A stretch of 64,000 bases of DNA from Eutreptiella sp. 'Long Island Sound 2002' (lineage: Eukaryota; Euglenozoa; Euglenophyceae; Eutreptiales; Eutreptiaceae), in the NCBI GenBank assembly GCA_964036045.1, contig OZ038388.1, positions 37,682,947-37,746,946 of the forward strand, given 5' to 3'. Below, piece by piece: positions 15,898 through 62,470 of this stretch. Under the pieces are notes generated by a model. It saw only the letters and a list, made by a program, of their open reading frames with translations. It made no database searches and was not told the DNA's origin. Every line of letters starts with the position of its first letter. The first letter of the stretch is position 1. Made by a program: the position numbers and the translations under genes.

Positions 15898-15899
15898 GT

Positions 15900-16799: not shown

Positions 16800-17992
16800 G
16801 ACTTGGCTTCCCGCAGCCCCTTCCGGCTGCGATCCGCCAGGACTTTGTCCACCACGTTGCTGGGCTTTGAGTTCCTCCAACGTCCTCAACATGTCCTCAG
16901 CCACCTCCTCGATCGACCTCACCCGTCGGTCTTGGCCAGGTCCACCACTATAGCCTCCTCCTCCGCCTTTTCCTTGCCCTTTGCCTTGGCCTTTTCCCCC
17001 GTCTCCGCCCTTCGCCTTCCAATCGGAAATCTGCTGCTCCTTGGGCTTCTTCTCGGGGTGGGCGGCGAAGTAGGCCTTCTTGTCCGCCTCATACACCTTG
17101 CACTGACGGTGGTCGTGTGCATGGTTGTTTCCCTTGCCATAACAGACCCAGCACCCGTCGTGCTGAGACCTGTACTCTCGGAACGAGAGCGGTGGGTTCC
17201 CGATCCTCTTTGGCTCTCTGCTCTTCTTGGGTCCCACCTGGCTCCATCTGGACCGATCCTGCCCATGGTTCCTCACGTTGTGTGCCACAAACGCGAAGAA
17301 ATGGGCCTCCTCGTGATCCTCCCGGGACCCGGTCCAGTGGTCTTGGCCACTTCCACTACCATCCTCCGCGGAGTTGGCCGTGTCCTCCTGGATCTCCCGA
17401 TGATGGCGGTCTTCTCGGTGTCCTCGTTGTCCATGACCATGTCGATCCTGCACGTGGGCCTCGTTCTTCGCATTGAGCTTCAACTCCACCGTGATGTACT
17501 TCACGATCTCGTCCAGGCTCATGCGGGCGAAGATGACCTGCATCCTCGGCGGCTCCCCGCGCCTCCACTCCACGTTGTTGAGGCGCAGCAACCTTTGCCC
17601 CATGGAGTCTCCAAATACCTCCACGTACACGGCGTTCTTCAGTCCCAACATCCGGTTGGGCTCGCCCAGGTTCCTCCTGAAGAACTCCATGATACCCGCA
17701 TGGGTATCCTCCGCCGCCATGATCCTCACCGCCACCCGCTTCTTGGCTCGCTTCTTCTCCTCGTCCTCCACTCTCTTCTTCCAGTTGCCGGGGAGGACGT
17801 CCTTCAGTAGGTGGCGGATCTTGCTGGCCTCGTTCCAGTCCTCCACCAGCTTGAGGCATCTGCGGTACTTCCGCAGATACCGGTTCCACTCCCGGACCCG
17901 CAACTCACCGCGGTCCAGCGGCAGCGGGATGGACCACAAGTCCTCCAGCTTCTGGTTCGGAGCGTCCACCCGCTCCTCATCCTCCAACCACT
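16797..17992 (-). CDS. TE2 gag C-terminal half (capsid-like region, zinc knuckle)
   Basis: Homologous to TE1 gag through the ERVDAP motif (near 17970), VEDWNE, a Lys/Arg-rich helix, RIGNPPLSF, and a zinc knuckle beginning CWVCYG near 17145 and completed by a downstream His and Cys. A Gly/Lys-rich tail follows, then the TAG at 16799. The upstream half of the same gag is at 28749-30536; TE3 inserted between them after the CCACT target. The ORF appears to start further right (to 18149) only because the TE3 LTR happens to be open in this frame; those residues are not gag. Confidence 0.82.
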
Positions 17993-18524
17993 TGAAAGTG
18001 CTGCCCTGGGTCGTTGTGGGTGCCGGAGGGCTCGGGGCCGGCAAGACCAGTGGGGCAGGCACGCGAGGAGTCTCCCTGGATGTTGTTATTGGGGGTAGAA
18101 CCGGACACTCGGACACCAACGGAGGCGAGAGCAGCGACAACAGAAGCAAGATCCATGCTGATTGTGGTCCGGCAGAAAATCCCAGTCTATGAAGAAAATT
18201 GAGGGGAATTATTCTAAATACATCTGAGTGTCCAAAACTGTCCGAATGAATTTAAATAATCCATTTATGTAAAATTGTATGGCCGATCAGGCCCGCGAGC
18301 GCGCGCCAGCGGCAAATGGCGATTCCAGCTAAAATAGCGGAATGCGGCGGATTTACGGGAAATGGACCGCGGAATCAAATCCGGCATATCAGAAATATAT
18401 AGGAAATATCCTGTGACTGAGCTGCGAGGCGGCAATTCCGCCGAAGCAAAGAAAATGACCAAAATGTAGCCAATCTGGGCAGAATGTCTGAAAATCTGAG
18501 CAGATGGGGCTAGCCGCACTTACA
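17993..18524 (-). repeat. TE3 3' LTR
   Basis: 532 bp, identical to 28217-28748 except one base. Coding-strand ends are TGTAAGTGCGG and GCAGCACTTTCA. The left flank is the CCACT target duplication. It contains an AT-rich interior and a GCGCGCGCC-like patch; I cannot assign promoter elements with confidence. Confidence 0.95.
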
Positions 18525-23100: not shown

Positions 23101-25353
23101 CGTCGCGATGATTATGTCATCTATGTACACACTCACGAAGGCACGAAGCTCAGGATGGGTTGTGAACAGCACATCCTCCATCATTCTTTGAAAAAATGAG
23201 GGGGCGTTCTTCAATCCCATGGGCATGACGGTCCATTGGACTGGGCCACAGGGCGTGCACATACAGGTAAGAGGTCTGCTGTCCTTCCTCAACGGCATTT
23301 GGTGAAAGCCGTGACGGAGATCCAGCACAGAGAACAAACGACCTCTTGCCCTCTTGGCGATTTCCTTCTCAATGAGGGGCAGGGGGTGTGAATCCGCCTT
23401 GGTTTCGGCGTTGAGATTGCGAAAATCAACCACCATTCGCCAACCATCAATGGTGTTCTGGTCTGCAGGCGGTGGCTTCGGGACTGTGAACGGTGAACAG
23501 CACCATTCGCTGGTCATACAACCCTCAAGCCAACCAAATTCCCTGAGATTTCTCTCGATGATTTTTCTGAGAATCTCATGTTTGTGTCCATGATTTTCAT
23601 AAGGGCGCTGTTTTTTTGCCTTGTACCCTTCACGAAGCTCGATGAAGGCTTCACCGAACTGCCCACGGACAGGGGGATCTTTGATCAACTTCCCTGAAAG
23701 GGTTGTGTCCTTCCGTTCCTCAAAAATCTTTTCTCTTGACTTGGAACACAATTCAGTGTCCACCTGATCGCCAGGAATTACTGTCGAAAAAACTTTGGCG
23801 ACTTCTTCGGCTTTGGCAGGAAGAATCTTCTTACGGATGTCCCTAAACAGGTCCGTATCCACTGCCTCTTGAAGATAGGTGGGTCTTGTGTCGAAATCCC
23901 AGAGATTTTCTTCGCGATCCAGCTCCTCGAAAGGATCCATGAAAGCTTCCACAGGGGGTTTTTCATAAAAAACTCTGAATTTGCGGCGCGATTGGAGATT
24001 TTTCCTCGCCCGTGCACTGAAGATTCTTTTCGATGTCGACCGTATTGGGGAAGAGGGAGACGAGGCGGATCCATTGGACGTTGAATCACCTTGGGTATCT
24101 GACGGACAAAAATCAGAAAAAATAGATTCATCATCAGTACCACGCTCAACCTCAGATTCAGACCCAACACAGGAATCTGTACTAGAATCGGCAGAATTAG
24201 AGTCAGAAAGCTTTCCATCCACCAGGAATGCAAGCGAACTCCAGGACCGCTGTGGCAGGGGACCTGTGTCGTCCCTGGCATACAGCTTAATCTTCCTAGG
24301 AAGTTCGATGTAATCTACACAAATGTCCTGTAATTCCTGAAACCAAGGCTTGTCGTCCCACAAAGGCACAACTAAAATTGCCTGGGTTTTATCTTGCTTG
24401 ATTTTGTGGATGACCTGCTGGATTAAGTGAAACGGAGGGTTAATCCACAACTTCTTGTCCCATTTGTGGGTCCAAGCGTCGCTGAAGTGCTTGTCAAAGC
24501 GCTTGTTCGTACGGTTAGCAAAGGCATCATACTGGGGCCAAAAGGAATGATGTTCATGGAAGTATTCACAAATTGCATCGCGCCATTTGTCGACAACTCT
24601 GTAGGATGAAGAGTGCCAGCGCGAAGGGCGTCGTGGCTGGGAGTCCCTACGAAGACATTCTAACTCTTGGGAGTAATCGGCACTCCCATTCACCTCTGCA
24701 ATGGTGACATCTTCACCAAATTTTGGTGTCACTTTTTGCTTCAAAAATTCTTCTGCACTTTTAAACCCTGCGTGCAAAAAACGAAATTCAGGACGCTCCA
24801 AGGGACCTGACTCCAGCAAAAAACAACGACGATGACCTACAGGCGCTACCCTGTTCTTGCGAAGCCAAGGATGCCCCAAATAAAGGTCATATTTTATGTC
24901 AGCACGATAGAAGTAGTCATCCTTAAGGACAACTTCTTCCACATTTTGCTCCTCCCAAAGGTCTTGAGCGACCAAATGGGTTGATATATAACAACCGCGT
25001 TGCCCACCTGCGAGAGAATGTCCAGAAACTCCCTCGAGGGTAACAGGATGAGGCGATTCAAACACGCAGTCGTCGGGTAAGAATGCATTGGATTGGAGAT
25101 TTACCTCTGATCCATTATCACACAAACAAGTGGCGAGGTGGAAATTTCCCTTGCAATCAGAGACCCACAGCTTTGTGACAAACTGACGAGCCCTGTGCTT
25201 GGACTGTACACCAACCTCGTCCACTACAGCAGAAGGATCCGTTGCCGGATCCAGGGGAGAGGAGACAAGCGACCCTACATCAAGTAATGGTCGGTCAGGA
25301 ATTTGGGGATCATGCCTGAAATCGCCTGGGGAGGGGCGATTTTCGTGGCTCCC
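20170..25353 (-). CDS. TE3 pol: protease, methyltransferase-like block, RT, RNase H, integrase, chromodomain
   Basis: One open frame from the codon after the gag UAG to TGA at 20170. Residue numbers here count from 25224. A protease-like segment has CDNGSEVNL at 35-43 (DNG where retropepsins have DTG/DSG) and LYLGHPWL near 114. The methyltransferase-like block has DAFANR 233-238, NPPF 262-265 and VVPLW 285-289, matching the Dam-like block of DIRS/Ngaro elements. Reverse transcriptase has WRMVVDFRNLN, DLRHGFHQMPL and the catalytic YIDD. RNase H has IRTDASRYAIGAV. Integrase has an HHCC-like zinc site, TSDFF, TDSGKEY and GERAGR. The chromodomain (CEWRGF, NNWEPAQSF) is near the C-terminus. No frameshift or internal stop was seen, so it could encode a working enzyme set. 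The unusual DNG deserves attention. Confidence 0.93.
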   Translation of the reverse strand, partial: GSHENRPSPGDFRHDPQIPDRPLLDVGSLVSSPLDPATDPSAVVDEVGVQSKHRARQFVTKLWVSDCKGNFHLATCLCDNGSEVNLQSNAFLPDDCVFESPHPVTLEGVSGHSLAGGQRGCYISTHLVAQDLWEEQNVEEVVLKDDYFYRADIKYDLYLGHPWLRKNRVAPVGHRRCFLLESGPLERPEFRFLHAGFKSAEEFLKQKVTPKFGEDVTIAEVNGSADYSQELECLRRDSQPRRPSRWHSSSYRVVDKWRDAICEYFHEHHSFWPQYDAFANRTNKRFDKHFSDAWTHKWDKKLWINPPFHLIQQVIHKIKQDKTQAILVVPLWDDKPWFQELQDICVDYIELPRKIKLYARDDTGPLPQRSWSSLAFLVDGKLSDSNSADSSTDSCVGSESEVERGTDDESIFSDFCPSDTQGDSTSNGSASSPSSPIRSTSKRIFSARARKNLQSRRKFRVFYEKPPVEAFMDPFEELDREENLWDFDTRPTYLQEAVDTDLFRDIRKKILPAKAEEVAKVFSTVIPGDQVDTELCSKSREKIFEERKDTTLSGKLIKDPPVRGQFGEAFIELREGYKAKKQRPYENHGHKHEILRKIIERNLREFGWLEGCMTSEWCCSPFTVPKPPPADQNTIDGWRMVVDFRNLNAETKADSHPLPLIEKEIAKRARGRLFSVLDLRHGFHQMPLRKDSRPLTCMCTPCGPVQWTVMPMGLKNAPSFFQRMMEDVLFTTHPELRAFVSVYIDDIIIATEGEGLTEAELVALHEKQLNQVLDILDANQLICGPKKGKLFLKSVEFCGSLLENGTRRPSPGKLVAIQKWKRPETITELRGFLGCCNFYHTFVPNYAKFAAPLTELLKVGRDAGKAGSKVRVKWTDECEEAFHHLKAALCEVATLHVPQFDRPFYIRTDASRYAIGAVLEQVDEATGDHYPLAFWSRKLAPRQMQWSPREQETYAIICALKKYQSWVGTNRVEVLTDHRSLEYWATEHIDTVASPAGRRARWHEFLSLFDLHVSYLPGKHNTVADALSRWAYPASEGLQSTNIHGTEQDRHVIIEWDQEEKKLIRRACMQCAVKQHALPCHDITAISDPAHAHEICTKTMKVVENVTDPSTGSVKRFDYTRRVNRFRLIQGIKRRDPAKTPPLPKDSLIIRDWTSDYLQDPMFKEVFGNLKSKDAHRDGIFAEYSLDGGKLWMEGKLCVPDALAPRVLNWWHKWESPHAHGRRLWSMIKHRLFGSRLYTHCMKVAARCAQCAVSTPPSAKKHGHLRPHPIPGRLFNRVTSDFFYLGELDDEECHWTNKKVNGVLLIQCRHSGYIQVLPCNIESMTGKAAAKWCAQTWMGGWDVPSEVVTDSGKEYTSEWWRELCARLGIHHLRCEIHSHRALPGERAGRSIINMLRKELASEKDFHWMEVLFALLRRYHNTPLYHGLSPNEIVFGRKKCCSNMPLNNPRPCKDASLFLDEVQRADKSVSKLIEKHQADWLWVQNQGRKNPHNFEVDDRVWLRKSETTLDADDKLLPLWEGPFAVTARLGENRWRIRVDVSREIDVSGDRLKREIPSPKDRVKPLFWTAKHLSDRVIEGGKYELKRIVEARRDAKGEWEFLCEWRGFDSSHNNWEPAQSFVHGYTKGFIDFLKKHPEIGVLLTDCLSKPDRQVESDGKQPVVNRDPAFYGPQQPHSRADPSIPPPAVRPAQEPNEDQASSSAADLQRPSRTRARPDRLVVTCIRAWPN

Positions 25354-25356
25354 CTA
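25317..25356 (-). promoter_or_regulatory. UAG readthrough site with H-type pseudoknot at TE3 gag-pol junction
   Basis: On the coding strand TAG (25356-25354) is followed by GGG AGC. GGGGAG (25354-25349, overlapping the stop) is complementary to CTCCCC (25333-25328). AAATCGCC (25342-25335) is complementary to GGCGATTT (25326-25319). The two stems interleave (stem 1 5', stem 2 5', stem 1 3', stem 2 3'), which is the H-type pseudoknot order that stimulates UAG readthrough in gammaretroviruses. Gag and pol are in the same frame across it. Structure is by inspection only. Confidence 0.6.
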
Positions 25357-28300: not shown

Positions 28301-28380
28301 TGGATGTTGTTATTGGGGGTAGAACCGGACACTCGGACACCAACGGAGGCCAGAGCAGCGACAACAGAAGCAAGATCCAT
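25354..28380 (-). CDS. TE3 gag
   Basis: A 1,008-codon open frame. The middle carries a capsid-like region around QPKYNGNPRRWPQFQREF (about residues 510-530), with W-rich helices of the retrotransposon gag type. Next is a Cys/His cluster (CSICLLLGS, then H and H) that may be a diverged zinc knuckle, then a long Gly/Asn/Arg-rich tail suited to RNA binding. It ends NAAAGGQNA-UAG, with pol in the same frame. The first Met (28380) lies inside the 5' LTR and the frame runs through the primer site; a downstream Met near 28190 is an alternative start. This is likely the particle-forming protein. Confidence 0.85.
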   Translation of the reverse strand: MDLASVVAALASVGVRVSGSTPNNNIQGDSSRACPTGLAGPEPSGTHNDPGQHFHGSRGYLNVVPMVSQPQLAPQYDPATSGDVTITLPWCCANEALRGMPCASPNCPRRTQISSCGGPDYNQDPSRNWPSSSWNLPAYANGNAPVELTDLAGTNAPYQCPHFETIDADIDDIEMGGPGEVPTYNRPASWAQWDNHLSSEVARNLEALEALCLLATSKLIGQERIASDFLFEYFFLLQEEIKTRMWWCSQEDESFSIFLQIWEASPFPKEKTKAPVAGPSAPHPSVSIRDDLAAAVEEGILEAARQASLEIRTEGAPQVNSWLRTTEISGPTACSGPSGHGMYCPADCSCRLQRDTELQLLKDQMQLIIQTLGIKDLFKTHMRSEGASSVDQTTEPSEEATEIFSIAPSVDSKTTDARISRTKLKERVTISRSQSRSAKARTEVQNAKRTASRTTLPAVDSNAIAQMLLAQTLAGAGVANDAAKVSTITAGVGLDSLLNPTSLRLRQVAKQPKYNGNPRRWPQFQREFKLWVKTQKLQDDQFLMALLDCLEGAPANTWLRTWSDREDSSSPLTFDEVWEQLEVRGSRLPEDYYHQMLKNFPSFSRLILHEVQDKRQRFWNLVEESEHSGEKFSSAELKNLIFDKIPSETAATLRNRQSEEKVKTWWAEIDGFDASANRFTVREALQKCSPTSFTKVKFTGNTWKIKFNEHEDRDLFVQVLNRGVSFHGNRLKARNWVFSFTPQELWEEVERLADAANQNFHEGLGGNRNTQQNTQNGAQKGNKKVNDTRNVQDHCSICLLLGSTNRAKTHSTANHRWSAYDHKVIGENVSNSQNSDRNDRQVHGAKGGKGNSTPSGGNKNTGGPGGSQGKGNRTPSGSGGQPNGQTSPNVNAGGGNRNPGQTPQSGTNKGNAPGSQGKGKGNPSGTPFSGKGRGRGDGGGPSSGGRGRGRGKGNHRVDQVSGADQVSDADRDYVENALNPADDPFQDEWIDETGCVHNVNAAAGGQNA
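28204..28216 (-). other. TE3 primer binding site (initiator Met tRNA type)
   Basis: Directly after the coding-strand LTR end (CTTTCA) comes TGGTAGCAGAGGC. The first 12 bases are the complement of a eukaryotic initiator-Met tRNA 3' end (CCTCTGCTACCA). TE2 has the same site next to its 5' LTR. Confidence 0.8.
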
Positions 28381-28748
28381 GCTGATTGTGGTCCGGCAGA
28401 AAATCCCAGTCTATGAAGAAAATTGAGGGGAATTATTCTAAATACATCTGAGTGTCCAAAACTGTCCGAATGAATTTAAATAATCCATTTATGTAAAATT
28501 GTATGGCCGATCAGGCCCGCGAGCGCGCGCCAGCGGCAAATGGCGATTCCAGCTAAAATAGCGGAATGCGGCGGATTTACGGGAAATGGACCGCGGAATC
28601 AAATCCGGCATATCAGAAATATATAGGAAATATCCTGTGACTGAGCTGCGAGGCGGCAATTCCGCCGAAGCAAAGAAAATGACCAAAATGTAGCCAATCT
28701 GGGCAGAATGTCTGAAAATCTGAGCAGATGGGGCTAGCCGCACTTACA
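28217..28748 (-). repeat. TE3 5' LTR
   Basis: 532 bp, one mismatch to 17993-18524. It carries the first Met of the long gag frame at 28380. The right flank 28749-28753 is the CCACT target duplication within TE2 gag. Confidence 0.95.
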
Positions 28749-43080: not shown

Positions 43081-43780
43081 ATGCGTTTACTGGTGGCATG
43101 CGAAAGGTCACAGCTGGGCACATCCGCGTTCCGCGCCGCGGGACACGAGGCGTACAGTTGTGACACACAGGCATGCGACAAAGGGGGGCGACAGGAGTGG
43201 CACATACAAGGTGACGCGATCGACGCAGCCTACACCACTGGTCCATGGGACATGATGATCGCACACCCACTGTGCACGTACCTCGCCAAGAGCGGGGGCC
43301 GATGGTTATACCACCCGGACGACAAACTACTCCCGCAGGACCAAAGACGCCTGCAGCCGAAATTCCCCTCATCGGCTGCAGCGGAGAGACGAGGCGATCG
43401 ACTTCGTCGACAGACTATTCGCGGCACCCGTAGAGCGGATCGCCATCGAAAACCCGGGCGGGTCGCTGACCACACGATGGAAGAAACCCACACAGCGCAT
43501 CCAGCCTTGTATGTTCTGACACGACGCACAAAAGGAAACGCTGCTGTAGCTCAAGAATCTACCCCCGTTGAAACCAACCAACGTGGTCGACAAGGGAGTC
43601 TTTGTGACAATAACACACCAAAAAAACGGGGCGCAAGAGACGCATACCGGTGTGGTACTCGGCGGCGGCAAACGACCCGGAGTGACAATACAAGCGCAGC
43701 GTGACTTTCACCGGTATCGCGGAGGCAATGGTCGGCCAGTGGACCACCACTGGCTAGTGCATGATGCGCGCGCCGTGGCT
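43081..43780 (+). pseudogene. Phage/large-virus-type cytosine-methyltransferase-like protein, decayed
   Basis: Starts MRLLVACERSQ with a Rossmann-like opening: GHEAYSCD (positions 33-40), HIQGDAIDA, then WDMMIAHPLCTYLAKSGGRW. This is the pattern of a family common in phages and large DNA viruses, usually annotated as DNA methyltransferase-like, where the motif is normally HPPCTYL. After about 100 residues the coding shifts frame near 43370 and continues EAIDFVDRLF, AIENPGG, QRIQPCMF, then TGA (43517-43519), KETLL, TAG (43547-43549) and LPPLKPTNVV. The two stops sit where the family, as I recall it, has Gly and Trp codons one base away. It is therefore a pseudogene of a once-functional copy. 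It points to a virus-derived segment in a eukaryotic chromosome. Confidence 0.65.
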
Positions 43781-43848: not shown

Positions 43849-44067
43849 TGTCCAAAAGACCGTGAACGAAGGGGTTTCACCATTTCGTCACAACCATCGA
43901 CCCGTGCGATATACCGGGGACTCTACAAACACGGCCTGGACCAGGCTGGTCGCACCCTGTGCATCAACGACAATCGCTACTGCTGGACAGACAGTGGTAA
44001 GTGTAAACCGGGCGCCTGTCGTTTGATGCCGACCTTGTACCAATAGGCCCTGGCCACAATCCTCAGT
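43849..44067 (+). pseudogene. Unknown gene, left part, cut by DNA transposon
   Basis: Open frame with four cysteines in a short span (CINDNRYCW, CKPGAC), interrupted by TAG at 44044-44046 and ending at the transposon insertion. The last codons before the break (ATC CTC AGT) continue in the same frame at 49045 if 44068-49044 is removed, giving the C-terminal part that ends at 49665. No family recognised. The position next to the methyltransferase-like relic suggests the same origin. Confidence 0.5.
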
Positions 44068-44096
44068 CTTAGGCGGCTCAAGTTGCATGGTCAAAA
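44068..44096 (+). repeat. Left terminal inverted repeat of the DNA transposon
   Basis: 29 bp, exact reverse complement of 49011-49039, with TCAGT immediately outside. Confidence 0.95.
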
Positions 44097-45096
44097 TGCG
44101 CCCAAAACTGCCTCTCCATGGCACTGCGAAGAAATAGTCCTTTTGGGGGGGACCTAAAACACAAGAACCAAGAATCCTGTGAAATGCAATTAACTGGTCC
44201 ATTTTCCTTTATTTTCAACAAAACCGACTGCCCGGGAAAATGATTTATTTCCACCAAAATGAAGTTCTTTTTCGGGAAAACCACGACTTTCTGTCTCCTA
44301 TACCACTTATGCTTTGCAATAAAAACACCCATGAGCTTTCAATCTTTTGGAAAACCAGTTTTCGAAAACCATGTTGCACGCTGCATGACAAGAAGCATTT
44401 TTTGGCACCCCTTATTTGTGCAAGGCCTCGCGCAAACACCAACACAACAGCGCAATAAAATCCATCACAGAGAAAAATGTGCCGCACAGCGTGACAGCAT
44501 AAAGGTTGTCGAAGAGGAATGCATAGCGCGAGCCCTCGCGCATAATATATCAGAACAAGCGAAGAAATCGATTCTTCTTCGGAACAGTTTGCATCTTAGA
44601 ACCCAATGCCTTAGCAACGGACGTCTTACCCTTAGGCGGTGGCTTTGCGGGCTCGCTTCTTGGTTGGGACTGACGGGCTGGCTGCTTGAATGGAGCTCGG
44701 GCCCCGGTTGCCTCGATCCTCGGCTTTGCTGCCACTTTCTTCGCTGCCTTGCCCTGAGAGACCTGCGCTTCCTCCTCCTCTTCTTCCTCGCTCTCCTCCT
44801 CTTCAGGTCAAACGTAGTGGCCGGTGTGCGGGTGGTCCAGATGCATTGAGACCCACTGGTCAAGGATGATGTCGTCAATCGAATTTCGCAAAGATTTAAG
44901 GGTTGTTTTTTCTTCCTGCATCACTTCTGCCACTTTCTTGTAGAACTCCGGCAACAGGATCCCGTCCAGTTTCTTCAGCGCGTTCTTCGTGCCTTTCTCC
45001 TCTTTGTCGTGGAACTTCTGCAGACCTTTCACAGCTTCCGGACCAGCATAGTAGGCAAACGTCATAAAATCTTTCCACAATTTTTACGTTTTGTCC

Positions 45097-45166
45097 TGAA
45101 AGTGACAACGTTATGCGCGAGGCCTCACGCAACAAACAGCATCGAAACAACGATTAAAGAACATAC
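45097..45166 (-). other. 70-nt intron with central palindrome
   Basis: Begins GTATGT, ends CTTTCAG, and contains TGCGTGAGGCCTCGCGCA. Splicing keeps the frame at phase 0 between QPGQL and DKT, although a TAA follows three codons later. Confidence 0.6.
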
Positions 45167-45528
45167 CAATTGACCAGGCTGCTTCAGTTCAGCGGTTGGA
45201 ACCAGGGCACTCATCTGCACAGCATCCACAATGGAGATCTTGAGATTGCTGTACGTGTCAGCCAGGCCTCGCTGCCGCTGATCTTCAACACGCCGAATGA
45301 GGTTATCTGCTGCCTCATACAGCGGTATTGGCTCAACGTCCTGTGCGCTTCCTTGTGCTTGTCCCGCCAGCTTTGCACGGAAGGCCCTCGGTGTCGTAGG
45401 CTTCAGAATATCGGCGATGCATGTAGTATGCCACTGCTGCAGATCCAGACACGCTGTGCGTCGCTTCTCTCGAATCTTCGCAATCGCCTTAACGCTGTTC
45501 TGTCCAGATACACACCAATAATCGCCAT

Positions 45529-45601
45529 CTGCAAATATGAGACACGTCTATGCGCAAGGGCTCGCGCAACGAGAAGAGCGAACAGTCGGTTGGCAACATA
45601 C
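45529..45601 (-). other. 73-nt intron with central palindrome
   Basis: Begins GTATGT and ends TTTGCAG. Splicing joins SEDN to GDYWCVSGQN in frame. A variant of the element-wide palindrome (TTGCGCGAGCCCTTGCGCA) sits mid-intron. Confidence 0.7.
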
Positions 45602-46092
45602 TATTATCTTCCGAGAGAACGACGTGTAATGGGCCTGTTGGCGGTGCTGCTTCGAGTGACTCAATACGCTTCTGCAGTAATTTCGTATCTTTCCGTCTAA
45701 TCTGCCCCTTTGTCTTCTCCTTGTCAATTCTCACGTTGTCCAGCTCAACCTCCACCTGCCGCCCATCCGGTTTCAGGTGGTCCTCGATGTCAGTACCCAA
45801 GGTTAAGCCAGGATCTGGTTTTTTTTCTTCTTACGCCCCTTCTTTGGTGTTCCAGCCTCCGATCCTGAGGTCCCAGGGTCATAGTCGGTATCTTTTCATT
45901 CCTCGGCTGTTTTTTTGGCGGGGCTTGCCATTCTGCGATAAGGAGAAAGCCTGTATTGAAGGAAACATAACATTGAAAAGGGTTAAAATCGTCGTCGATA
46001 ATGCATATGTGAGGCGCTTTTAGCGAATACGAGTACAGTATGGTCGAGAATGCAAAACTGAAGGGGCTCGGCACTGTCTTTGACTGTCAACC

Positions 46093-46112
46093 TTGCGCGA
46101 GGCCTCGCGCAA
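46093..46112. repeat. Perfect copy of the 20-bp palindrome repeated through the transposon
   Basis: TTGCGCGAGGCCTCGCGCAA is its own reverse complement. Further copies or close variants: 44420-44436, 44524-44543, 45113-45132, 45551-45569, 46148-46166, 48539-48554, 48598-48613 and 48823-48845. All lie between the terminal repeats, in introns, between genes or downstream of genes. They may bind the transposase or mark intron-generating sequence. Confidence 0.85.
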
Positions 46113-46166
46113 GAGAGGGGGTGTACTAACCTGTTGTTTCATGCTGTTTGCGCGAGGCCTCGCGCA

Positions 46167-48154
46167 TCACTGCATGTTCTCCAATCTTCTTCGAACGTTT
46201 CGCAGTGTGTTGGCCTCTCTCTGTTCCTCCAACACACTGCGTTGGGGGATCAGCTCCGACAGTTTTCGCTTGAAACCAGCCTTAAGCGGCCCCTGCTGCG
46301 TAAGCACCAACAACAAAGACACAAGGACTTGTTTGTAGTGGTTAGAACCCTTTGGAATTAGAAGAGACCGTGGAAAGTTAGGTACACCCCTGCGCGGCCA
46401 ATACGCCTGAATTGTACAAGTAGGCTCAGCACACCACCTAACCCAAGGCACATATACACGCTCTGCGTTCACGTAAGCAGTTAACCGCTGACGCACGGAA
46501 TTGACAAAGGAATTGGGGATTTTGCAGACGTTCACCCTGTGACCTTCTTTGCGAATAGTGATGAGAGGATACAGATCGTCAACATCTTCAATGGTTACTG
46601 CACCTCTGTTTTGGCCCTTCTTTGTCACAAGGCTGGAAAGCAGACTTTCACAAAACTCCTCGGCAAAAGCCTGTCCAGGCATGGCTGTGTGCAATGCAGT
46701 GTGGCACAATAGCGCAGTTGCAACAGTGCGTTCGTATTTCAAAAGTGTATCCCCCATGTTCAAACGGTCTAACAGACACATAACAAAATCTGCAATCCCT
46801 TAGAAGCAAAAACACCCGTGTTGGCCGTCCCCTCAGCCCAATTGCACTGTCTAACGAGGTGACCTAGGTATAGTAACATGGGACAGTATAGTGTTAACAG
46901 AACCTGTATGGCCTTACACACAGCGTAACGGAGGCGTCCTCGCCGATTTACAGGACGTGCCAGCCCAAGGGAATGACATTTTCTGTTAAGGCGCCGTATG
47001 TGGGTGCCCATACCCAACAGCAGTGCGCAAACAGTTATCTCCATTGTGATCAGCTTGGGAAAACAGGGGACTGTGTCACCGCTGCGCAACAAACCTTTAC
47101 GGAAGAAAGTCACGATCGGCCAAAATGAGCGAAACGTTTGTGTAACGAAAAACTTGTACGCGTGCCAGAAACCATACAATATGAGGTGTGACCGCAAGAA
47201 AAGCCAGACATTCCTACCAATTGTTTTTTCACCGTACATCATGCTACAAATGCGGTAATGGATGTTCTCATCACATAAAACAGGCACGACTGGTCGAGTG
47301 TGCTGCGCCAAGTCCCTAGTGAATTGCAATAGATTAAGCAGCGAGACGTTGCCGCTCACCTTTTCTTTACTTAGACAAAGGGGTCGCCAATGTGGTCTCT
47401 TGGCAGGTACAGGGCGAATAATGTCAAGCGGCGCCCTAATGTTTCGAACAACAGGTCGCGTGCTTGCAAATCCTAGATCACGCAGGATACGTGCAAATGT
47501 TCCCTCGGTGTTCCCCAGCATGCGTGCAACAACAGGAACACGCCGTTCAAGCTCTTCCAGGCTAGGATCATCATGCCAGTAGCGCGGTGCATCCCTCAGT
47601 AGCAACACAGCCAACGCTGTTGCGTTCAGGCTTTTGTCGTTCTTGTCAGTATTTGTGGTAAACTGTTTGTTGTACCAGTTGTCCATCCACAACACAACCC
47701 AGTGTTGGTGTATTTTGTTCCATGTAGTCTGTAACCTGACTGCGGCCTTCTCCTTCAGCGAAGGTGCGCTGTATCACGCCAGACCTGACCGTGCTAAAAT
47801 GCGACGCTGCGCCCTACATCCCTCTACCGCAGCAACTGACTTTGGTTTTCCCTGGTATGGAACTGCGCGGTGGCGCATCAGCAGAAGGAGGCGCCAGGCC
47901 TCCTCTATCAAAACAGCAACCCATCTCTTGCCTTCTGCCGCAATCGCCTTTTCAACGCTGCAACGCGTCCGTTTATTTTTGCGCAGACGCAGAAAAAACA
48001 TAAACAACAATCGCGCGCCCTCGTCCCCCTTTTTTAGCCCTTCCCACAGTTCTGCTGCCGTGTGGTATGGCAGTTCCTCTGAGCAGACATCGCGGAGAAC
48101 TCCAGATGCTGCGGCCACTGTCTTCTCAAGGTCCACCTCTTTTCGCAGGGGCAT
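46167..48154 (-). pseudogene. Transposon gene B: candidate novel transposase
   Basis: From ATG at 48154 about 125 codons run to TGA (47776-47774). The same frame then continues for over 330 codons to 46769, where a one-base frameshift leads into a final ~200 codons ending at 46167. Candidate catalytic acidic residues stand in conserved-looking contexts: MDNWYNKQF (about 47683), LCDENIHYRI (about 47270) and FCESLLSSL (about 46650). This D, D, E order is compatible with a DDE-type transposase, but I cannot assign a superfamily. The middle is rich in aromatic and basic residues (LYGFWHAYKFFV). It is the largest gene of the element and the obvious transposase candidate. The break at CGA-like TGA plus one frameshift suggests recent inactivation or assembly error. 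Confidence 0.55.
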
Positions 48155-48234
48155 TGTTGCTGTGAAGAATAATTGCGTACCTGTATCGACGTAAAGCTGT
48201 TTGAAAAACTTTCTTGATTTGAAACATCAACCTG

Positions 48235-48519
48235 TCACACAGTTTTCGCGCGACCAATTATTCTGTGATTCGCTTGTCGCATGCGCCATTTTCGGTTAAC
48301 TGTAACTGTCTGGTGATCCCACATTTGACTAGTTAATCCTGATTGCGGTAGCCAGTTGCGGCGCGCTACCATCGCTGTTGGGCAGTGAAGCCAGCGGTGA
48401 CCACAGTATGAAAACTGGAGATGCTGGCGGGACCTGTATGGGCGCCCATGCAGCAGCGGCGCATCAAGGGAATGCACATGCTGTGTATTTGGTGGATCTG
48501 TTCCATTTTTAGTTTCCAT
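48235..48519 (-). CDS. Possible upstream exon of transposon gene B
   Basis: A 94-codon frame starting METKNGTDPPN, with Trp/Arg-rich sequence near its end. It lies inside the transposon just upstream of gene B, with possible splice signals near 48155-48180. It may be an N-terminal exon or a chance ORF. No motif recognised. Confidence 0.25.
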   Translation of the reverse strand: METKNGTDPPNTQHVHSLDAPLLHGRPYRSRQHLQFSYCGHRWLHCPTAMVARRNWLPQSGLTSQMWDHQTVTVNRKWRMRQANHRIIGRAKTV

Positions 48520-49010
48520 GAGCGCTTATGAGGTCCATTGCGCGAGGCGTCGAGGAATGATCACCGAAACTTTAATGTTTCTCATGCGCCGTTCCATGCT
48601 CGGGGCCTCGCGCTTAAAACTGCAGTTTGTTCCGGAACATTTATACTTTTCAAGATTCTTGGGTACACCATTGTTGCAGTTTATTCGTTAATAGATCCAT
48701 GTCTATCACGCAATCCTGATAATGGTACTAAGTTACGTGTATAAATACGACAGGGTTCCATTTTTCGACCACCTGCCTAATGCGTCCTCCTGTAGCACAT
48801 TAATCTGACACAAATGAACGTCTTTGCGCGAGGCCTTGCGCAAAGAATGGTCATCAAGCAATACTTTTCCGTGTCTCGCCGATGGGACACGTCATTCTTA
48901 TAGAAATATTTATTCCGCCATACTTGTTTGCGACGGTTTTAAAATATCCATCAAAACAACTATTTTTTGATGCCTTTGGAAACCTGTCATTTTCCTACCT
49001 TTTCCTTTGT

Positions 49011-49039
49011 TTTTGACCATGCAACTTGAGCCGCCTAAG
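49011..49039 (-). repeat. Right terminal inverted repeat of the DNA transposon
   Basis: Exact reverse complement of 44068-44096; TCAGT lies immediately outside at 49040-49044. Confidence 0.95.
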
Positions 49040-49665
49040 TCAGTGAATGCACCGGAACAGTCTACGGTGTGCAAACGCTGTATAAGTTGGTCGTGGGCGT
49101 CTACACCATTCATCTGTACCGCGACACCACGGGTGGACGAGATGACCGTTTTGTCGTGCACACAATCATTCGCCCCTTCTAGCAATTTGACATTGAAATT
49201 TCTACCGGTGAGGTGTATCCCATGGAAGTCCTCTGTTCCAAGTTGACGTCGTTTATGGACGCACCCCCGGAAGACCGCGATATGCGAAACCCACCCAAAT
49301 TCAAAAGGGGGGTTCCAGTGCTTTCGATCAAGTGTATCGGGTTACTGTCAGACGTGGTCATCGACGACGAAGAGTCCTGGGTTTTCCAGGCACAGCAACC
49401 GATCGGACAACTGAAAATCACAAACTTTGACACCCACAATGACCACCCTATTCACATCGATGATGACGACGAATTCCCCTTGCCAGTGCCAACCACGACG
49501 TTCATACCCAAATATGTCTCGTACGCACCGGGTGACAACCAGAAGTCATGGATTTGGTCAAGCAGACCGACGACGCCCGGTACCCGTCACCCTCTGTGGG
49601 ATGTCGTCGTGCCACCACAGCCACCAACAATTCCCAATAAACGAAAACGTCAATTGTCAGACTGA
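49040..49665 (+). pseudogene. Unknown gene, right part, with acidic region and basic C-terminus
   Basis: Continues the frame of 43849-44067 once the transposon is removed. It has LYKLVVGVYTIHLYRD near the junction, then TAG at 49180-49182, then a 150-codon open stretch from GEVYPMEV. That stretch includes an Asp run (HIDDDDEF) and ends in KRKRQLSD, a nuclear-signal-like tail. No family recognised. The 210-bp satellite starts about 100 bp downstream. Confidence 0.5.
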
Positions 49666-49769: not shown

Positions 49770-51600
49770 TTGTACACACAAACCACCGTTCACCGTAGTA
49801 TTTTCTCAACAAACCGCTCCAGTTAGGAACACATACATATCCATCCCCTCTTTTTCTCTTGAGGTACCGGAGGAAGACCAAACCCCCTCCCTTGTACTAC
49901 CGCAAGTACATCCGACAAAAACAAAACACAACCACCAAATTTTCCATCCAGTTTTCCGTGTCGTGGACAACCACCGTTCACCGTATTATTTTGTCAACGA
50001 AAAAATTATCCAGTTACACACACACCACACCTACACACGCAAAGCCCCCATCTCTCGCATAACCGACAAAAACAAAACATAGCCACCAAGTATCCATCCA
50101 GCTTTCCGTGTCGCGCGGACAACCACCGTCCACCGTATTATTTTGTCAACGAAAAAACAAATTAATCAAGTTACACCTACATACACACACAATGCCCCCT
50201 CTTTATTTTTTAGGTACACCAAACAAGACCAACCCCCCTCCCTCCTCCACGAATTTACTTACCGCGTGCACATCCGACAAAACGCAAAACACAACAACCA
50301 AAGTATCCATCCAGTTTTCCGTGTCGCGCGGACAACCACCGTCCACCGTATTATTTTGTCAAGGAAAAAAAATTAATCCAGTTACACCCACATACACACA
50401 CAATGCCCCCCCTTTTTTTTTTGAGTACACCGATGAAGACCAACCCCCCTCCCTCCTCCACGAATTTACTTACCGCGTGCACATCCGACAAAACACAAAA
50501 CACAACAACCAAAGTATCCATCCAGTTTTCCGTGTCGCGCGGACAACCACCGTCCACCGTATTATTTTGTCAACAAAACAAAAGTAATCCGGTTACACCC
50601 ACATACACACAGAATGCCCCCTCTTTTTATTTTAGGTACACCGAGCAAGACGAACCCCCTCCCTCCTCCACAAATTTACTTACCGCGTGCACATCCGACA
50701 AAACACAAAACACAACAACCAAAGTATCCATCCTGTTTTCCTTGTCGCGCGGACAACCACCGTCCACCGTATTATTTTGTCAAGGAAACAAAAGTAATCC
50801 AGTTACACCCACATACACACACATTGCCCCCTCTTTATTTTTTAGGTACACCGAACAAGACAAACCCCCTCCCTCCTCCACGAATTTAGTTACCGCGTGC
50901 ACATCCGACAAAACACAAAACACAACAACCAAAGTATTCGTCCAGTTTTCCGTGTCGCGCGGACAACGGCCGCCCACCGTATTATTTTGTCAACGAAAAA
51001 AAAAAAGATCCAGTTACACCTACATACACACACAAAGCCCACCTCTTTTTTTTTAGGTACACCGAACAAGACCTAACCCTCACCCTCATCCACGAACTTA
51101 CTTACCGCGTGCACATCCGACAAAACAAAAAACACAACCACCAAAGTATCCATCCAATCTTCCGTGTCGCGGACAACCACCGTCCACCGTATTATTTTGT
51201 CAACGAAAAAAAATGTTGCAGTTACACCTACATACACACACAAAGCCCCAACCTCTAATTTTTTTAGGTACAGCAAACAAGACCAAACCCTCGTGCACAC
51301 CCGACAAAAACAAAACCTAGCCACCAAGTATCCATCCAGTTTTCCGTATCATAGATCACCGCGATAACATAACGATAACACACGTATACGTACACACAAA
51401 CCACCCTTCACCGTATTTTTTTTAACACAACGATCCAGTTACACCTACATACACACGCGGGAATCCCTCTATTCATTTTTAGGCACACCGAACAAGCTCC
51501 AATATACAACAATCTACTATACTTACCCTGTGCACATCCAACAAAAACAAAACATAGCCACGAAGTAACCAATATTCCGTGTCGTGGATCACCGCGATAA
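49770..51600. repeat. Satellite of about nine ~205-215-bp units
   Basis: Each unit contains an ACAACCACCGTCCACCGTAT-type core (near 49783, 49969, 50119, 50335, 50551, 50755, 50963, 51175 and 51402), then a purine-rich stretch, a CAGTTACACC-TACATACACA segment, a T-run ending AGGTAC and ACTTACCGCGTGC. Units in the middle are most alike; the ends are degenerate. Open frames across several units exist because the unit length is often a multiple of three; I do not believe they are genes. On the minus strand each unit has a GGTAAGT resembling a splice donor. Confidence 0.8.
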
Positions 51601-52840
51601 CGTGACATTTACCGATCACGATTTACAAAACATTCAGACCACGAATCCACGATCGTTCGTTCGTTCAAATTCAAAACACCATCCAGTTATGCGATCCAAC
51701 CAGGAAAAAAAATACTTCGCGTGCGATGCAATGCAATCTCACGCGCATCGCGATTACCATCATATTCGTCAACCAACAAATTGAAAATTTTTAGTAATGA
51801 GTTCACACCAGAACCGGAACAAGGATATTGGTGACAACGCATACGGATACTGGACGAGAAACGGTACATGTTTCCAATGCACACCCTTAAAGTTAAACGA
51901 CGAGACATGCCACACCTACTTGCGTCTCATTTGCTCGCGACACAGGACCAATTGTACCAGAACCACATATGACATGGATGTGTTGCTATTGCGGCGGTCA
52001 AATGTGGTCCGCAAGCGAACAAAATTACACAATAACGAACGTCAAGATACGACAGGTATACACGACTTCGAATTCGCCACCCATGGATGCGTGCGATAAA
52101 CTCCAATGAACAACCTTTCTCCATCAGGTGAACATAATTGTAAAGATAAACCCAACACCAAGCAAGAAGCGTGACGAGGAAAAAGGATAACCATATCAAG
52201 TATGTGTCTTGCTTGATCACACTCGCATACACGACAAGATACACCAAAACACCCAGCGATCGCATTCGTGGTAGCACCACCATTCGTCCGTCTACCACCC
52301 GGATGGATGAATTCACGTAACAGATAACGACATAGCACCCAGTGGAAAATACACAATGATAGACAACCATTTTAGTACCTTCTACGTTCCGCATACTCTC
52401 CAGATAGATGGATTCACGTAATAGCTGTACACACGTGACCCGACCCATTTGGTGCACACATCCGATCATTGTTCCTTCGACAGGCCACGCGTGCATCCTA
52501 CATCAAATATCGCATCACAATTCCACAATTCCACAATTCAGCGGTTCCACAATACCGCGCAAAATTCGAGACGCCGATGCCCTACGTTAAACGGATAATT
52601 TCAAGGTAAAATTGCATTGCATCGACGACGAATTCACATATATATCACGTATACCACCACCCAGTCCGGCCACCACACCGGGATGGTCTATTCGCCGAGG
52701 CCATGTTTGTTCGTGTGTGCTCCAGTTGTGTCTCTTCGGTGATCGGTCTTTCTCGCATGTGCCGTGCACACAGGACACAAACCAAAAACAAAGAGGCTAT
52801 TTTAGGTAACAAAGCGCACACACCATAAAAGCACCACAAA
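51601..52840. other. Interval with one possible membrane-protein ORF
   Basis: A minus-strand frame of 189 codons (52496-51927) has three hydrophobic stretches (VVYHCVFSTGCYVVICYV, LGVLVYLVVYASVI and LSFFLVTLLAWCWVYLY) that could span a membrane. A shorter plus-strand ORF (51797-52099) overlaps it. Neither has a recognisable motif, and either could be chance. The rest holds nothing I can identify. Confidence 0.3.
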
Positions 52841-59757: not shown

Positions 59758-60137
59758 ATTAAGCTGCAGTGCATGCGGACGTGGTCTCTGTAGATTATAG
59801 GTCGCGCGCGTGTGCGTAGTCTCCAGGATTTGTTACGACATTTAGTGCATGTTTCACAGAGATTGTATTATAAAAAGCATTGTGTGTTATTATCTCATTT
59901 TGTAGATATATGATGTAGACCCGGACAAACGATTTGTCGATCTGGGGTCATAATCAGTCATCCTCTTGGTGTACTTGTGGGATTGGGGTATACGGAGGTA
60001 TGGCCGGTTACAAGATCGACTCCTAAGTTCCGTGTGCCTTACAAAACCGTCACCTAAGTACGGGTATGTTTCAAGGCCCTGCAACGCGCTGCTAGAGAAG
60101 TTTACCTGACTCCCTGCCAAGCTCATCTTGACAGACC
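59758..60137. other. Interval without a gene
   Basis: Only short frames on both strands and no motif. The downstream boundary of TE4 is presumably near its left edge. Confidence 0.35.
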
Positions 60138-60998
60138 ATGGGGAGTACTGCAAGATTGGCCGAAGAATTTCAGAGTCACTTTACAGAGTATGAGAGGTTT
60201 GACGGCCACGCTGAAGTGTCAGTGCGCTTGATGCGGCGAGAGCCCCCTCAGAATCACTGGGTTGGCTACGAAGGTCTTGGGTTTGATGTGTGTGAAGCGC
60301 ACTTACGGTCGTTGACAGTGGCTCTGCCTCATGACAAAACTCGTGGAAAAGTTTGCACTAAACACGCGAAGTATGGATTTTACTCCTTCAACCTGCCCGA
60401 ATGTGTTGATGAGTGCTTGGATTCGAAGGGACGCGTGCGTGAGAGGACAGAGCGCGTTCTGGTGCGAGCCTTCAATGACAAAGTGCTGATGGATTTGTGT
60501 GCGCTGCATGAACTTGTCGCGGCCGAGCGCCATTACAGAGGACAACAGGAGCGCGCTGAGAACTACATGTTTCTTCGTTATTGTGGTATGGAGAGAAAGG
60601 CAGTGACGCAACAGGCGACATCACTGGGGTTTCCCTGTTACGCGTATTCGATACGGCAGGATACGGCAGGATACGGCAGGATACGGCAGGATACGGCAGG
60701 ATACGGCAGGCTACAGCAGGATACGGCAGGATACGGCAGGATACGGCAGGATACGGCAGGATACGGCAGGATACGGCAGGATACGGCAGGATACGCAGGA
60801 TACGGCAGGATACGGCAGGATACGGCAGGATACGGCAGATACGGCAGGATACGGCAGGATACGGCAGGATACGGCAGGATACGGCAGGGTCCAAAATATC
60901 TGCTTGTTTGCACTACGAAAACAACCATTTTGCGTTCATTCAGCGTTTGGTGGTATTTCATACTGTTCTTGCATGCCTATTGTGACTTTCCCGGCTGA
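60138..60998 (+). CDS. Unknown protein with a decapeptide repeat tail
   Basis: Starts MGSTARLAEEF. The unique part is ~171 residues, with scattered Cys and His (GFDVCEAHLRSL, VCTKHAKYG, CVDECLDSK) that could bind metal. From about residue 172 it is GYGRIRQDTA repeats encoded by a 10-bp tandem repeat, followed by a short hydrophobic tail. The repeat is open in every frame, so the extended ORF may be an accident of repeat expansion into a gene. No family recognised; a real gene here would probably end before or in the repeat. Confidence 0.45.
   Translation: MGSTARLAEEFQSHFTEYERFDGHAEVSVRLMRREPPQNHWVGYEGLGFDVCEAHLRSLTVALPHDKTRGKVCTKHAKYGFYSFNLPECVDECLDSKGRVRERTERVLVRAFNDKVLMDLCALHELVAAERHYRGQQERAENYMFLRYCGMERKAVTQQATSLGFPCYAYSIRQDTAGYGRIRQDTAGYGRLQQDTAGYGRIRQDTAGYGRIRQDTAGYAGYGRIRQDTAGYGRYGRIRQDTAGYGRIRQGPKYLLVCTTKTTILRSFSVWWYFILFLHAYCDFPG
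60651..60899. repeat. 10-bp minisatellite (ATACGGCAGG), about 25 units
   Basis: Near-perfect tandem array, with one variant unit (CTACAGCAGG) and two 9-bp units near 60791 and 60832. Neither strand has a stop codon in any frame of the unit. Confidence 0.97.
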
Positions 60999-61271: not shown

Positions 61272-62147
61272 TTATAGACCTTCGGTGTACCTCTGCTCCA
61301 TGTTATGTAGGTTACAGCAGAAAATGAACAGGCCGGCAAGGAAGTCGTAGTTATACGGGCGCCCGGGAGCCTCATCACGGCCGTTCCAGAATCGCCAATT
61401 CTTAACATTGCTGAAAACATTCTCCACTAGATGACGGCCTTCATTGATCATCTGGTTGTAATGCACCATGAACCAGGTCAATCGGCCATCCCCCCCGGCC
61501 ACACGGCAGAACATGTTGTCCGCAGTGCTGTAGTGACAGTCACCGAGGCGGAGGTCAGGCCGAGGACCATTAAAGTTCCAGGGAATGGATGCATCCATGT
61601 CCGCCGTAATCTCAGCATCGGTGGCACGGGGCGGATACCACCACGAGCAGGCAATGATCTCGCGCCCCCAGTTGATCATGGCATTAAACACGAGCGCATG
61701 CCCGCGGTAAGTGGGTTTGTCGAACCAGAACAGCTCCCGGTCTACCGGGTGCGAAGGTGACTGGATGGCCACATGCGTGCTATCGACAATAGCAGACACA
61801 TGGCGGTGAATTGGATGACTGTGTTGGTGGGAATCCCATCGGCGTTCAAAAGCATCCGTGAACGTATCCCACAGGTGAGCCCGTTGTGACACGTCACGTA
61901 GTACTTGGATACAGTAGTCCCGACCAATTCCCAATGTCCTCGCACATGCAATCTGGCTGTACCCCAATCGCAGGAAAGAGATTGTAATTACAAACTCCTC
62001 TAATGTGAAAATGGAATTTGCCACCAGGAACAGCAGAAATCCCATTCTGTACCCGGTGGCATTCATGAGCGGCATTGCTGCAAGTGGAGCGCAGTGCGGG
62101 GAGTCGCCGCTATCAGAACGATCCACAGAGATCCACGTAAACTTCAA
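61272..62147 (-). CDS. PIF/Harbinger-like DDE transposase
   Basis: 291 codons. A helix-turn-helix-like segment (GYSQIACARTLGIGRDY) is at about 62-79. The DDE_4-type core shows IVDSTHVAI with Asp122, RLGDCHYS with Asp203 and LVENVFSNVKNW with Glu242. KPTYRGHALVFNAMIN and GLFIFCCNLHNM are also typical of this superfamily (established family knowledge). Length is near that of a compact PIF/Harbinger transposase. Terminal inverted repeats, the 3-bp duplication and the usual Myb-like partner gene were not found here. The frame is uninterrupted, so it may be functional or recently active. Confidence 0.8.
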   Translation of the reverse strand: MKFTWISVDRSDSGDSPHCAPLAAMPLMNATGYRMGFLLFLVANSIFTLEEFVITISFLRLGYSQIACARTLGIGRDYCIQVLRDVSQRAHLWDTFTDAFERRWDSHQHSHPIHRHVSAIVDSTHVAIQSPSHPVDRELFWFDKPTYRGHALVFNAMINWGREIIACSWWYPPRATDAEITADMDASIPWNFNGPRPDLRLGDCHYSTADNMFCRVAGGDGRLTWFMVHYNQMINEGRHLVENVFSNVKNWRFWNGRDEAPGRPYNYDFLAGLFIFCCNLHNMEQRYTEGL

Positions 62148-62470
62148 GACTTAAGGACTGAAGAACTTAAATGATTGAGCAGTGCAGAAAGGATATAACA
62201 ACAGCGGAAAAAACATTCTAATAGTGCTAATGTAACTAATGAGTAACATTCTTCTTTCATTGTCTCAGATATGTGCTGTCTATGAAATCAACAGTGAGGG
62301 CAACGAAGCAATCCATGGCTCTTGGCGGGAACAGTGTTTGATGGTCCTCCACTCTTAAGGAGTGTCAGTGAAGCGCTGCCATCCATGATTCTTGCGAGCC
62401 GGGCCAAGTGACGTGAAAGGTGCCTGATGGTCCTCCACTCTTAATGAGTCTCAGTGCGGCGGATGACAGC
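62148..62470. other. Interval without a gene
   Basis: AT-rich at first, then two similar stretches ATGGTCCTCCACTCTTAA (near 62340 and 62427). No ORF of note and no transposon ends recognised. Confidence 0.35.

What the first reader, a model, noticed from the sequence alone, without database searches (positions are those of the whole stretch)
44068..49039. DNA transposon with 29-bp perfect TIRs, 5-bp TSD and unrecognised transposase
Perfect inverted repeats, TCAGT on both sides, and a flanking reading frame that is continuous once the insert is removed leave little doubt that this is a mobile element. Its two proteins match no transposase superfamily I can name. Gene B has a plausible D (DNWY), D (CDENIHYR), E (FCES) set. 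A 5-bp duplication is rare among DNA transposons. This is the best candidate in the window for an undescribed system.
Basis: partly seen in the sequence, partly recalled or inferred. Interest (0 to 1): 0.87.

Follow-up and report, generated by a model that had tools for sequence, protein, structure and literature searches.

The report
Unclassified Euglena jumping gene family
This is a decayed copy of a cut-and-paste type jumping gene that is common in what is very probably the Euglena gracilis genome; its presumed cutting enzyme matches no family searched, and a repeated palindromic DNA tag spread through its non-coding parts suggests that the element carries its own control sites.

Summary
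44068-49039 is a mobile element with 29-bp perfect inverted ends and a TCAGT duplication. This copy is dead: it lacks 1.4 kb present in full-length relatives (6.37-6.40 kb), and both genes are broken. The host genome (2.28 Gb, very probably Euglena gracilis) holds 1,575 exact copies of the end. Of 16 insertions with both ends, 14 have an exact 5-bp duplication, none longer. Two empty sites with a single target copy were found, one per subfamily. Gene B (661 aa when intact) has no credible Pfam, PHROG or PDB relative. New: each of 10 full copies carries ten 18-bp palindromes (TGCGCGAGGCCTCGCGCA), all non-coding, three of them in gene A introns. In the two outer regions compared, the palindrome is the only significant match between subfamilies; three of five sites keep their distance from the ends. 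It occurs 10,135 times genome-wide. Best reading: a new cut-and-paste type family, perhaps a superfamily, whose own protein binds this array for transposition or anti-silencing (inferred).

The parts
44063..44067 (.). left target-site duplication TCAGT
44068..44096 (+). left terminal inverted repeat, 29 bp
49011..49039 (-). right terminal inverted repeat, 29 bp, identical
49040..49044 (.). right target-site duplication TCAGT
46167..48154 (-). gene B, putative transposase, broken here (one in-frame TGA, one frame change); its read-through is 92% identical to intact 661-aa P0001
44550..45931 (-). remnant of gene A (exon 1, exon 2, part of exon 3 fused to the C-terminal tail by the internal deletion); two predicted GT-AG introns at about 45529-45601 and 45096-45166, each holding a palindrome
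   Evidence: introns predicted from sequence, no RNA evidence
44803..44805 (.). joint of the internal deletion (three bases shared by both sides): full-length copies carry about 1.42 kb more here (element positions 739-2157)
44417..44434 (.). palindrome copy 1 (2 mismatches)
44525..44542 (.). palindrome copy 2 (2 mismatches)
45114..45131 (.). palindrome copy 3 (1 mismatch), in gene A intron 2
45551..45568 (.). palindrome copy 4 (2 mismatches), in gene A intron 1
46094..46111 (.). palindrome copy 5, between the genes, exact
46149..46166 (.). palindrome copy 6, between the genes, directly beside the gene B stop codon, exact
48539..48556 (.). palindrome copy 7, upstream of gene B (3 mismatches)
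48597..48614 (.). palindrome copy 8, upstream of gene B (3 mismatches)
48825..48842 (.). palindrome copy 9, right subterminal (1 mismatch)
23254..23333 (+). empty site (single TCAAC), inside a retroelement of the window, for a subfamily-2 copy on contig C1
   Evidence: 76 of 80 bases; 93% over 290 nt without a gap

Best explanation
A decayed, internally deleted copy of a two-gene, cut-and-paste type DNA transposon family. SHOWN: exact inverted ends; a 5-bp duplication of a single target copy at insertion; many copies; relatives with an open gene B, one of them with gene A open too; an internal-deletion derivative; a palindrome array conserved between two subfamilies. INFERRED: gene B is a DDE-type transposase that cuts at the CTTAG termini and joins them to target DNA with a 5-bp stagger; incomplete repair of the donor gap makes the internally deleted copies; the palindromes are dimeric binding sites for an element protein (more likely gene A, which has a basic stretch and an acidic tail), used to assemble the ends and/or to keep the element's chromatin open against host cytosine methylation. 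The transposase fits no superfamily that the sequence profiles searched here could name.
For: Ends and TSD: (14 of 16 exact at 5 bp, 0 of 16 at 6). Empty sites: subfamily 2, TCAAC; subfamily 1, ATTTA, 118 of 120 bases. Copy number: exact end 1,575 times; among the 100 places listed, all on contig C1, 13 facing pairs under 7 kb (1,906-6,413 bp) and no pair in another arrangement. Subfamily 2: 381 exact right ends; of 68 places scored, 65 have no stop and 48 share one score. Gene B open for 661 codons in 5 of 20 fetched copies; gene A open for 833 codons in 1 of 6 copies read. Invariant acids. No family. Palindromes: ten at corresponding positions in each of 10 full copies, none in about 2.6 kb of flank each; all in the 30% that is non-coding, chance about 6e-6 if placed independently; in the two outer regions compared between subfamilies nothing else matches significantly; 10,135 exact sites, control 0, expected 0.03.
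Against: No fold was obtained for gene B. No excision footprint or transposition was seen. Gene A has no recognisable DNA-binding domain. One of its four predicted introns lacks the palindrome. Two of five outer palindromes do not keep their distance from the ends between subfamilies (458 vs 501, 492 vs 618). Palindrome binding is untested. Introns rest on sequence only. Repbase and HHpred were not available, so a remote link to a named superfamily is possible. Subfamily 2 ends and TSD rest on one copy.
Confidence: 0.78

Rival explanations
1. A very diverged member of a known superfamily (hAT5, CACTA/Transib group, MuDR or KDZ) whose sequence has drifted beyond profile detection. It would still be a cut-and-paste type element, so this rival concerns classification and overlaps with the best explanation.
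For: 5-bp TSDs occur in hAT5 (PMC12730594, passages). The order D ... D ... GxxH ... E with long helical stretches resembles hAT, MuDR and P, which share C/DxxH (PMC10045372, passages). Two genes plus repeated sites recall CACTA (recalled).
Against: None of 33 members has a credible Pfam hit. [quoted passage not shown] the conserved His is in GxxH, and the only C/DxxH matches (one in P0073, one in P0138) are at different places and not conserved. Ends are CTTAG.
Confidence: 0.4
2. The palindromes are transpososome sites only (like subterminal repeats of CACTA or hAT elements, recalled), not anti-silencing sites.
For: Palindromes at about 206 and 434 bp from the right end and about 345 bp from the left end keep their place in both subfamilies.
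Against: Others lie deep inside, in introns of gene A and between the genes, 1.3 kb or more from either end, where end-binding would not need them.
Confidence: 0.35
3. The palindromes act in RNA, as intron and UTR hairpins for processing or termination.
For: A perfect 18-bp palindrome would fold as a hairpin in RNA; three lie in predicted introns.
Against: Some lie upstream of gene B or near the outer ends; one intron of similar length lacks it; RNA function would not explain fixed distances to the DNA ends.
Confidence: 0.15
4. The insert is a virus-like or satellite element rather than a transposon.
For: Endogenous giant-virus regions exist in Euglena gracilis (PMC12455990, abstract and section 4 part 1).
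Against: Those regions have 25-37% GC (table 1 of that section); this stretch is 48-50%, has two genes, and no capsid or polymerase match.
Confidence: 0.02

Closest known systems
VANDAL transposons with VANC anti-silencing proteins (Arabidopsis MULEs)
   Same: A family-specific short DNA motif sits in non-coding regions, including introns of element genes and upstream of the VANA gene (PMC5735166, passages).
   Different: Here the motif is an 18-bp palindrome at dispersed, mostly fixed positions, not tandem arrays; TSD is 5 bp; no MULE profile match; anti-silencing not shown.
CACTA / En-Spm (CMCT group)
   Same: Transposase gene plus accessory gene and repeated sites near the ends (recalled).
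   Different: Ends CTTAG not CACTA; TSD 5 bp not 2-3 (recalled); no CxxC motif; sites also inside introns.
hAT, especially hAT5
   Same: 5-bp TSD reported for hAT5 (passages); order D ... D ... H ... E.
   Different: No hAT profile match; GxxH where C/DxxH is expected.
Transib / RAG
   Same: 5-bp TSD (recalled).
   Different: No CxxC in 4 of 4 lineages; different ends (recalled); no Pfam match.

Membership tests
Cut-and-paste type DNA transposon | Terminal inverted repeats shared by independent copies | tested here: met
   15 of 20 fetched loci with both ends; 1,575 exact ends genome-wide
Cut-and-paste type DNA transposon | Fixed-length target-site duplication and empty sites | tested here: met
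   14 of 16 exact 5 bp, 0 of 16 at 6 bp; two empty sites
Cut-and-paste type DNA transposon | Transposase with RNase H-like DDE core | tested here: inconclusive
   Invariant acids found but models at pLDDT 42 and 48, and the fold search had no match at E 0.001
Cut-and-paste type DNA transposon | Excision | not testable with these tools
   No footprint or somatic data; internal-deletion copies fit it
CACTA/EnSpm-Mirage-Chapaev-Transib | CxxC and H(3-4)H between second D and last E | tested here: not met
   No CxxC in 4 of 4 lineages; an H-x3-H spacing in 1 of 4; feature from PMC12730594 passages
CACTA/EnSpm | CACTA termini, 2-3 bp TSD (recalled) | tested here: not met
   CTTAG termini, 5-bp TSD
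hAT (hAT5) | hAT transposase profile | tested here: not met
   no hAT family among the 4 weak families matched by 33 members at E 1
hAT (hAT5) | 5-bp TSD | tested here: met
MuDR/VANDAL | MULE transposase profile | tested here: not met
   no MULE match in 33 members at E 1
MuDR/VANDAL with VANC | Element protein binds the motif and removes methylation | not testable with these tools
   needs binding and methylation assays
KDZ (Zisupton and kin) | 8-bp TSD | tested here: not met
   5 bp; 8 bp for Zisupton from PMC12730594 passages

The most novel reading that the evidence does not exclude
Probability: 0.35. Interest if true: 0.86.

Novelty: new variant of a known kind. Interest (0 to 1): 0.72.

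Why it matters
In the published Euglena gracilis assembly 32.73% of repeat elements are given as unclassified (PMC11252322, passage). This family gives a class of repeats in what is very probably that species defined ends, genes and a diagnostic 18-bp tag that marks over ten thousand sites in one pattern search. If gene B is a DDE enzyme outside known superfamilies, it extends the list of eukaryotic transposases. If the palindrome array is an anti-silencing device, it would be an independent case of the strategy shown for Arabidopsis VANDALs, in a lineage with cytosine methylation and base J (PMC12455990, section 9). Subfamily 2 has many near-identical copies with open frames and looks recently active, so the idea can be tested.

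Tried and rejected
Profile searches gave nothing credible. Gene B: pieces of the window copy in Pfam and PHROGs, four relatives and then 33 aligned members in Pfam; weak hits (JAMP, DUF3487, a HEAT domain, Lambda CIII; best E 0.06) are taken as noise. Gene A: window pieces had only weak hits (Pfam DUF7309 and LarA_C, E 0.13 and 0.2; PHROGs best E 0.063, one named DNA helicase at 0.16), and the 833-aa protein had none in Pfam. PDB sequence searches: ABC transporters at E 0.43, thioesterases at E 0.06 and a ribosomal protein at 2.4 for gene B; a designed binder at 0.64 for gene A. Relatives in viral contigs, genome contigs and phages: none confirmed. NCBIfam, PADLOC and the viral fold library were not searched.

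An alternative genetic code was considered because the three in-frame stops that I read in the window copy are TGA. Rejected: open relatives have an amino acid there (P0001, L011), and five long retroelement frames in the window hold TGA or TAG only as their last codon. A dinoflagellate host was my first guess, dropped after the spliced-leader search. Giant-virus flank: rejected on GC. A Foldseek search of the second model was run although its confidence was low; the best E was 1.5 and it is not used. E372 as the catalytic acid cannot be excluded.
Full report
WHAT IS THERE. The element spans 44068-49039. Its 29-bp ends are identical inverted repeats and TCAGT stands on both sides. The two genes are on the minus strand: gene B at 48154-46167 and gene A remnants at 45931-44550.

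IT IS ONE OF MANY COPIES. The window lies at C11:37682947-37746946 of a 2.28-Gb genome in 2,205 contigs. A DNA search scored 32 of 3,224 candidate places; besides the window, 25 places match from query position 735 or 736 to the right end (4971 or 4972) at 94-97%. I fetched 20 of these 25. Fifteen of the 20 have both ends within 3 mismatches per end, 6,372-6,398 bp apart. With the window copy, 14 of 16 show an exact 5-bp duplication and 0 of 16 a 6-bp one. L022 and L023 look like one duplicated insertion, so independent cases are 13 of 15. Five of the 20 loci did not give both ends and were not counted. The exact 29-mer occurs 1,575 times in the genome (805+770), control 0. Of the 100 places listed there, all on C1, 13 neighbouring pairs under 7 kb face each other (1,906-6,413 bp) and none is in another arrangement.

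THE WINDOW COPY IS A DEAD DERIVATIVE. It aligns to full copies in two blocks, so that about 1.42 kb (element positions 739-2157) is missing (three copies shown there). The joint lies in gene A. Gene B has one in-frame TGA and one frame change; intact relatives exist (P0001, 661 aa, 92% identical to the read-through, a cluster of 146 members). Gene B is open for 661 codons in 5 of 20 fetched copies. In a 4.2-kb stretch the 21 copies are 95-99% alike, apart from the identical pair L022/L023, and I read the matrix as star-like. C-to-T changes are 2.8 times as frequent at CpG (0.0246) as elsewhere (0.0088), which fits methylated DNA.

EMPTY SITES. For subfamily 1, copy L011 (duplication ATTTA) has an unoccupied repeat of its own target about 0.6 kb downstream: 118 of 120 bases, a single ATTTA. 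For subfamily 2, the copy at C1:9497042-9503897 (6,856 bp, 23-bp ends CTTAGCCCACGCAAACTGCACCC, duplication TCAAC) sits in a sequence whose unoccupied relative is in this window at 23254-23333, with a single TCAAC, inside a long retroelement frame (Gypsy-like by eye; not profiled).

GENES. Gene A was read in 6 of 10 full copies before the script stopped. By sequence it has four GT-AG introns of 67-74 bp, each found in 4 to 6 of the 6. One of the six is open for 833 aa, with a lysine-rich stretch and an acid-rich part. The subfamily-2 copy has a similar lysine-rich and acidic end ahead of a stop at the corresponding place (401 bases read). No protein family or PDB chain matches credibly. Three protein searches of gene B showed only this family as far as listed: 81 of 81, 120 of 286, and 94 of 94. 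The third scored 1,018 candidates on residues 256-446 up to E 10. Two hits, P0134 and P0138, are on contigs of 1,935 and 3,277 bases of unknown origin; P0138 is 32% identical to P0001 (197 of 623 columns). In P0001, P0073, P0134 and P0138 the invariant acidic residues are D158, D244, D295, E296 and E372 (4 of 4) and E498, E499 and E502 (3 of 3; P0134 ends before them). The order D, D, H331, E, with short strands predicted just before the first two D and helices after, is what a DDE core would show. But AlphaFold gave mean pLDDT 42 (33 rows) and 48 (12 rows), and the fold search is not usable. The DDE assignment is an inference.

SUBFAMILY 2. Searching the genome with P0073 (43-46% identical to subfamily 1) scored 68 of 8,465 candidates: 65 of 68 have no stop, and 48 of 68 share one score at 95% identity to the query. 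A 30-nt right end occurs 381 times, control 0. These copies look recent.

THE PALINDROME ARRAY. TGCGCGAGGCCTCGCGCA occurs 9 times (0-3 mismatches) in the window, all inside the element, against 0.04 expected by shuffling. In each of 10 full copies there are ten (0-3 mismatches); in L011 they start at 350, 458, 1332, 2469, 2906, 3450, 3505, 5897, 5955 and 6183, in the others within a few bases of that except L016, which is shifted by about 25. None was found at up to 4 mismatches in about 2.6 kb of flank per copy. By the gene map of L011 all ten are non-coding: two beyond gene A's stop, one in each of three of its four introns, two between the genes, three upstream of gene B. The coding share is 70%, so the chance of ten of ten non-coding is about 6e-6 if independent. 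Between the subfamilies I compared two outer regions, left of gene A and upstream of gene B. There the palindromes are the only matches at E below 0.01; the left comparison also gave two 10-nt matches at E 0.38. From the left end they stand at 350 and 458 (subfamily 1) against 342 and 501; from the right end at 206, 434 and 492 against 207, 432 and 618. Three of five keep their place and two do not. Exact places at C1:9497383, 9498587, 9499742, 9500721, 9500777, 9503271, 9503457 and 9503682 show a similar internal plan for the subfamily-2 copy, including a pair 56 bp apart in its middle (55 in subfamily 1); its middle was not read. Genome-wide there are 10,135 exact sites, control 0, expected 0.03. 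Of the 50 sites listed, all on C1, 46 have another within 10 kb by my count; one of the other four, 8559025, is about 0.35 kb inside an exact end at 8559363.

HOST. The 26-nt spliced leader given for Euglena gracilis in PMC6242988 (passage) occurs 2,580 times (1,233+1,347), control 0. Two assembly facts fit: 2.37 Gb (PMC11252322, passages) and about 51% GC (PMC12455990, section 4 part 1). TTAGGG arrays were seen at 3 of 10 contig ends read. The species is an inference.

HOW IT PROBABLY WORKS. Gene B protein binds the ends, cuts at CTTAG and joins them to target DNA 5 bp apart (inferred from the duplication and the invariant acids). Incomplete repair of the donor gap yields internally deleted copies such as this one (inferred). 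The palindrome, with four CpGs, is a natural site for a dimer. Its presence in subterminal, intergenic and intronic DNA, and its absence from coding DNA, resemble VANC targets in VANDAL elements, which lie in introns and upstream regions (PMC5735166, passages; PMC10398659, abstract). Cytosine methylation is reported in Euglena gracilis (PMC12455990, section 9). Anti-silencing, transpososome assembly, or both remain possible.

KNOWN OR NEW. Works like: a two-gene cut-and-paste element. Member of: no superfamily that I could test. CMCT motifs are not met, C/DxxH is not conserved (GxxH instead), and no hAT, MULE or other transposase profile of Pfam matches. 5-bp duplications are known for hAT5 (passages). 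The letters of the ends and the palindrome were found in no paper of the held library. A search for Euglena with DNA transposon terms showed no paper on this family, judged by title and abstract start of the 15 shown of 33. Neither proves absence from print, and Repbase was not available.

Noticed in passing
window 61272-62150 (-): A frame matching DDE_Tnp_4 (Pfam E 2e-12), so a second, ordinary transposase.
   Followed up: no
window 20170-28410 (-), 11713-18251 (-), 1872-8346 (+): Three sets of long open frames that look like Gypsy-type retroelements by eye; the first holds the empty site for a subfamily-2 transposon.
   Followed up: partly
window 50001-52000: Strongly skewed repetitive DNA (GC skew -0.415) just beside the element.
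   Followed up: no
window 60132-60998 (+): A frame with many GRIRQDTAGY repeats.
   Followed up: no
G000:C5:3788880-3827804: Four subfamily-2 gene B places in two pairs about 6.27 kb apart, the pairs 30.7 kb apart: possibly a duplicated segment.
   Followed up: no
L031, L035, L037, L038: The printed ends of these terminal stretches carry GGTCTATAGACC-like palindromic repeats.
   Followed up: no
window 43081-43704 (+): A 207-codon frame left of the insertion, unidentified and not searched.
   Followed up: no
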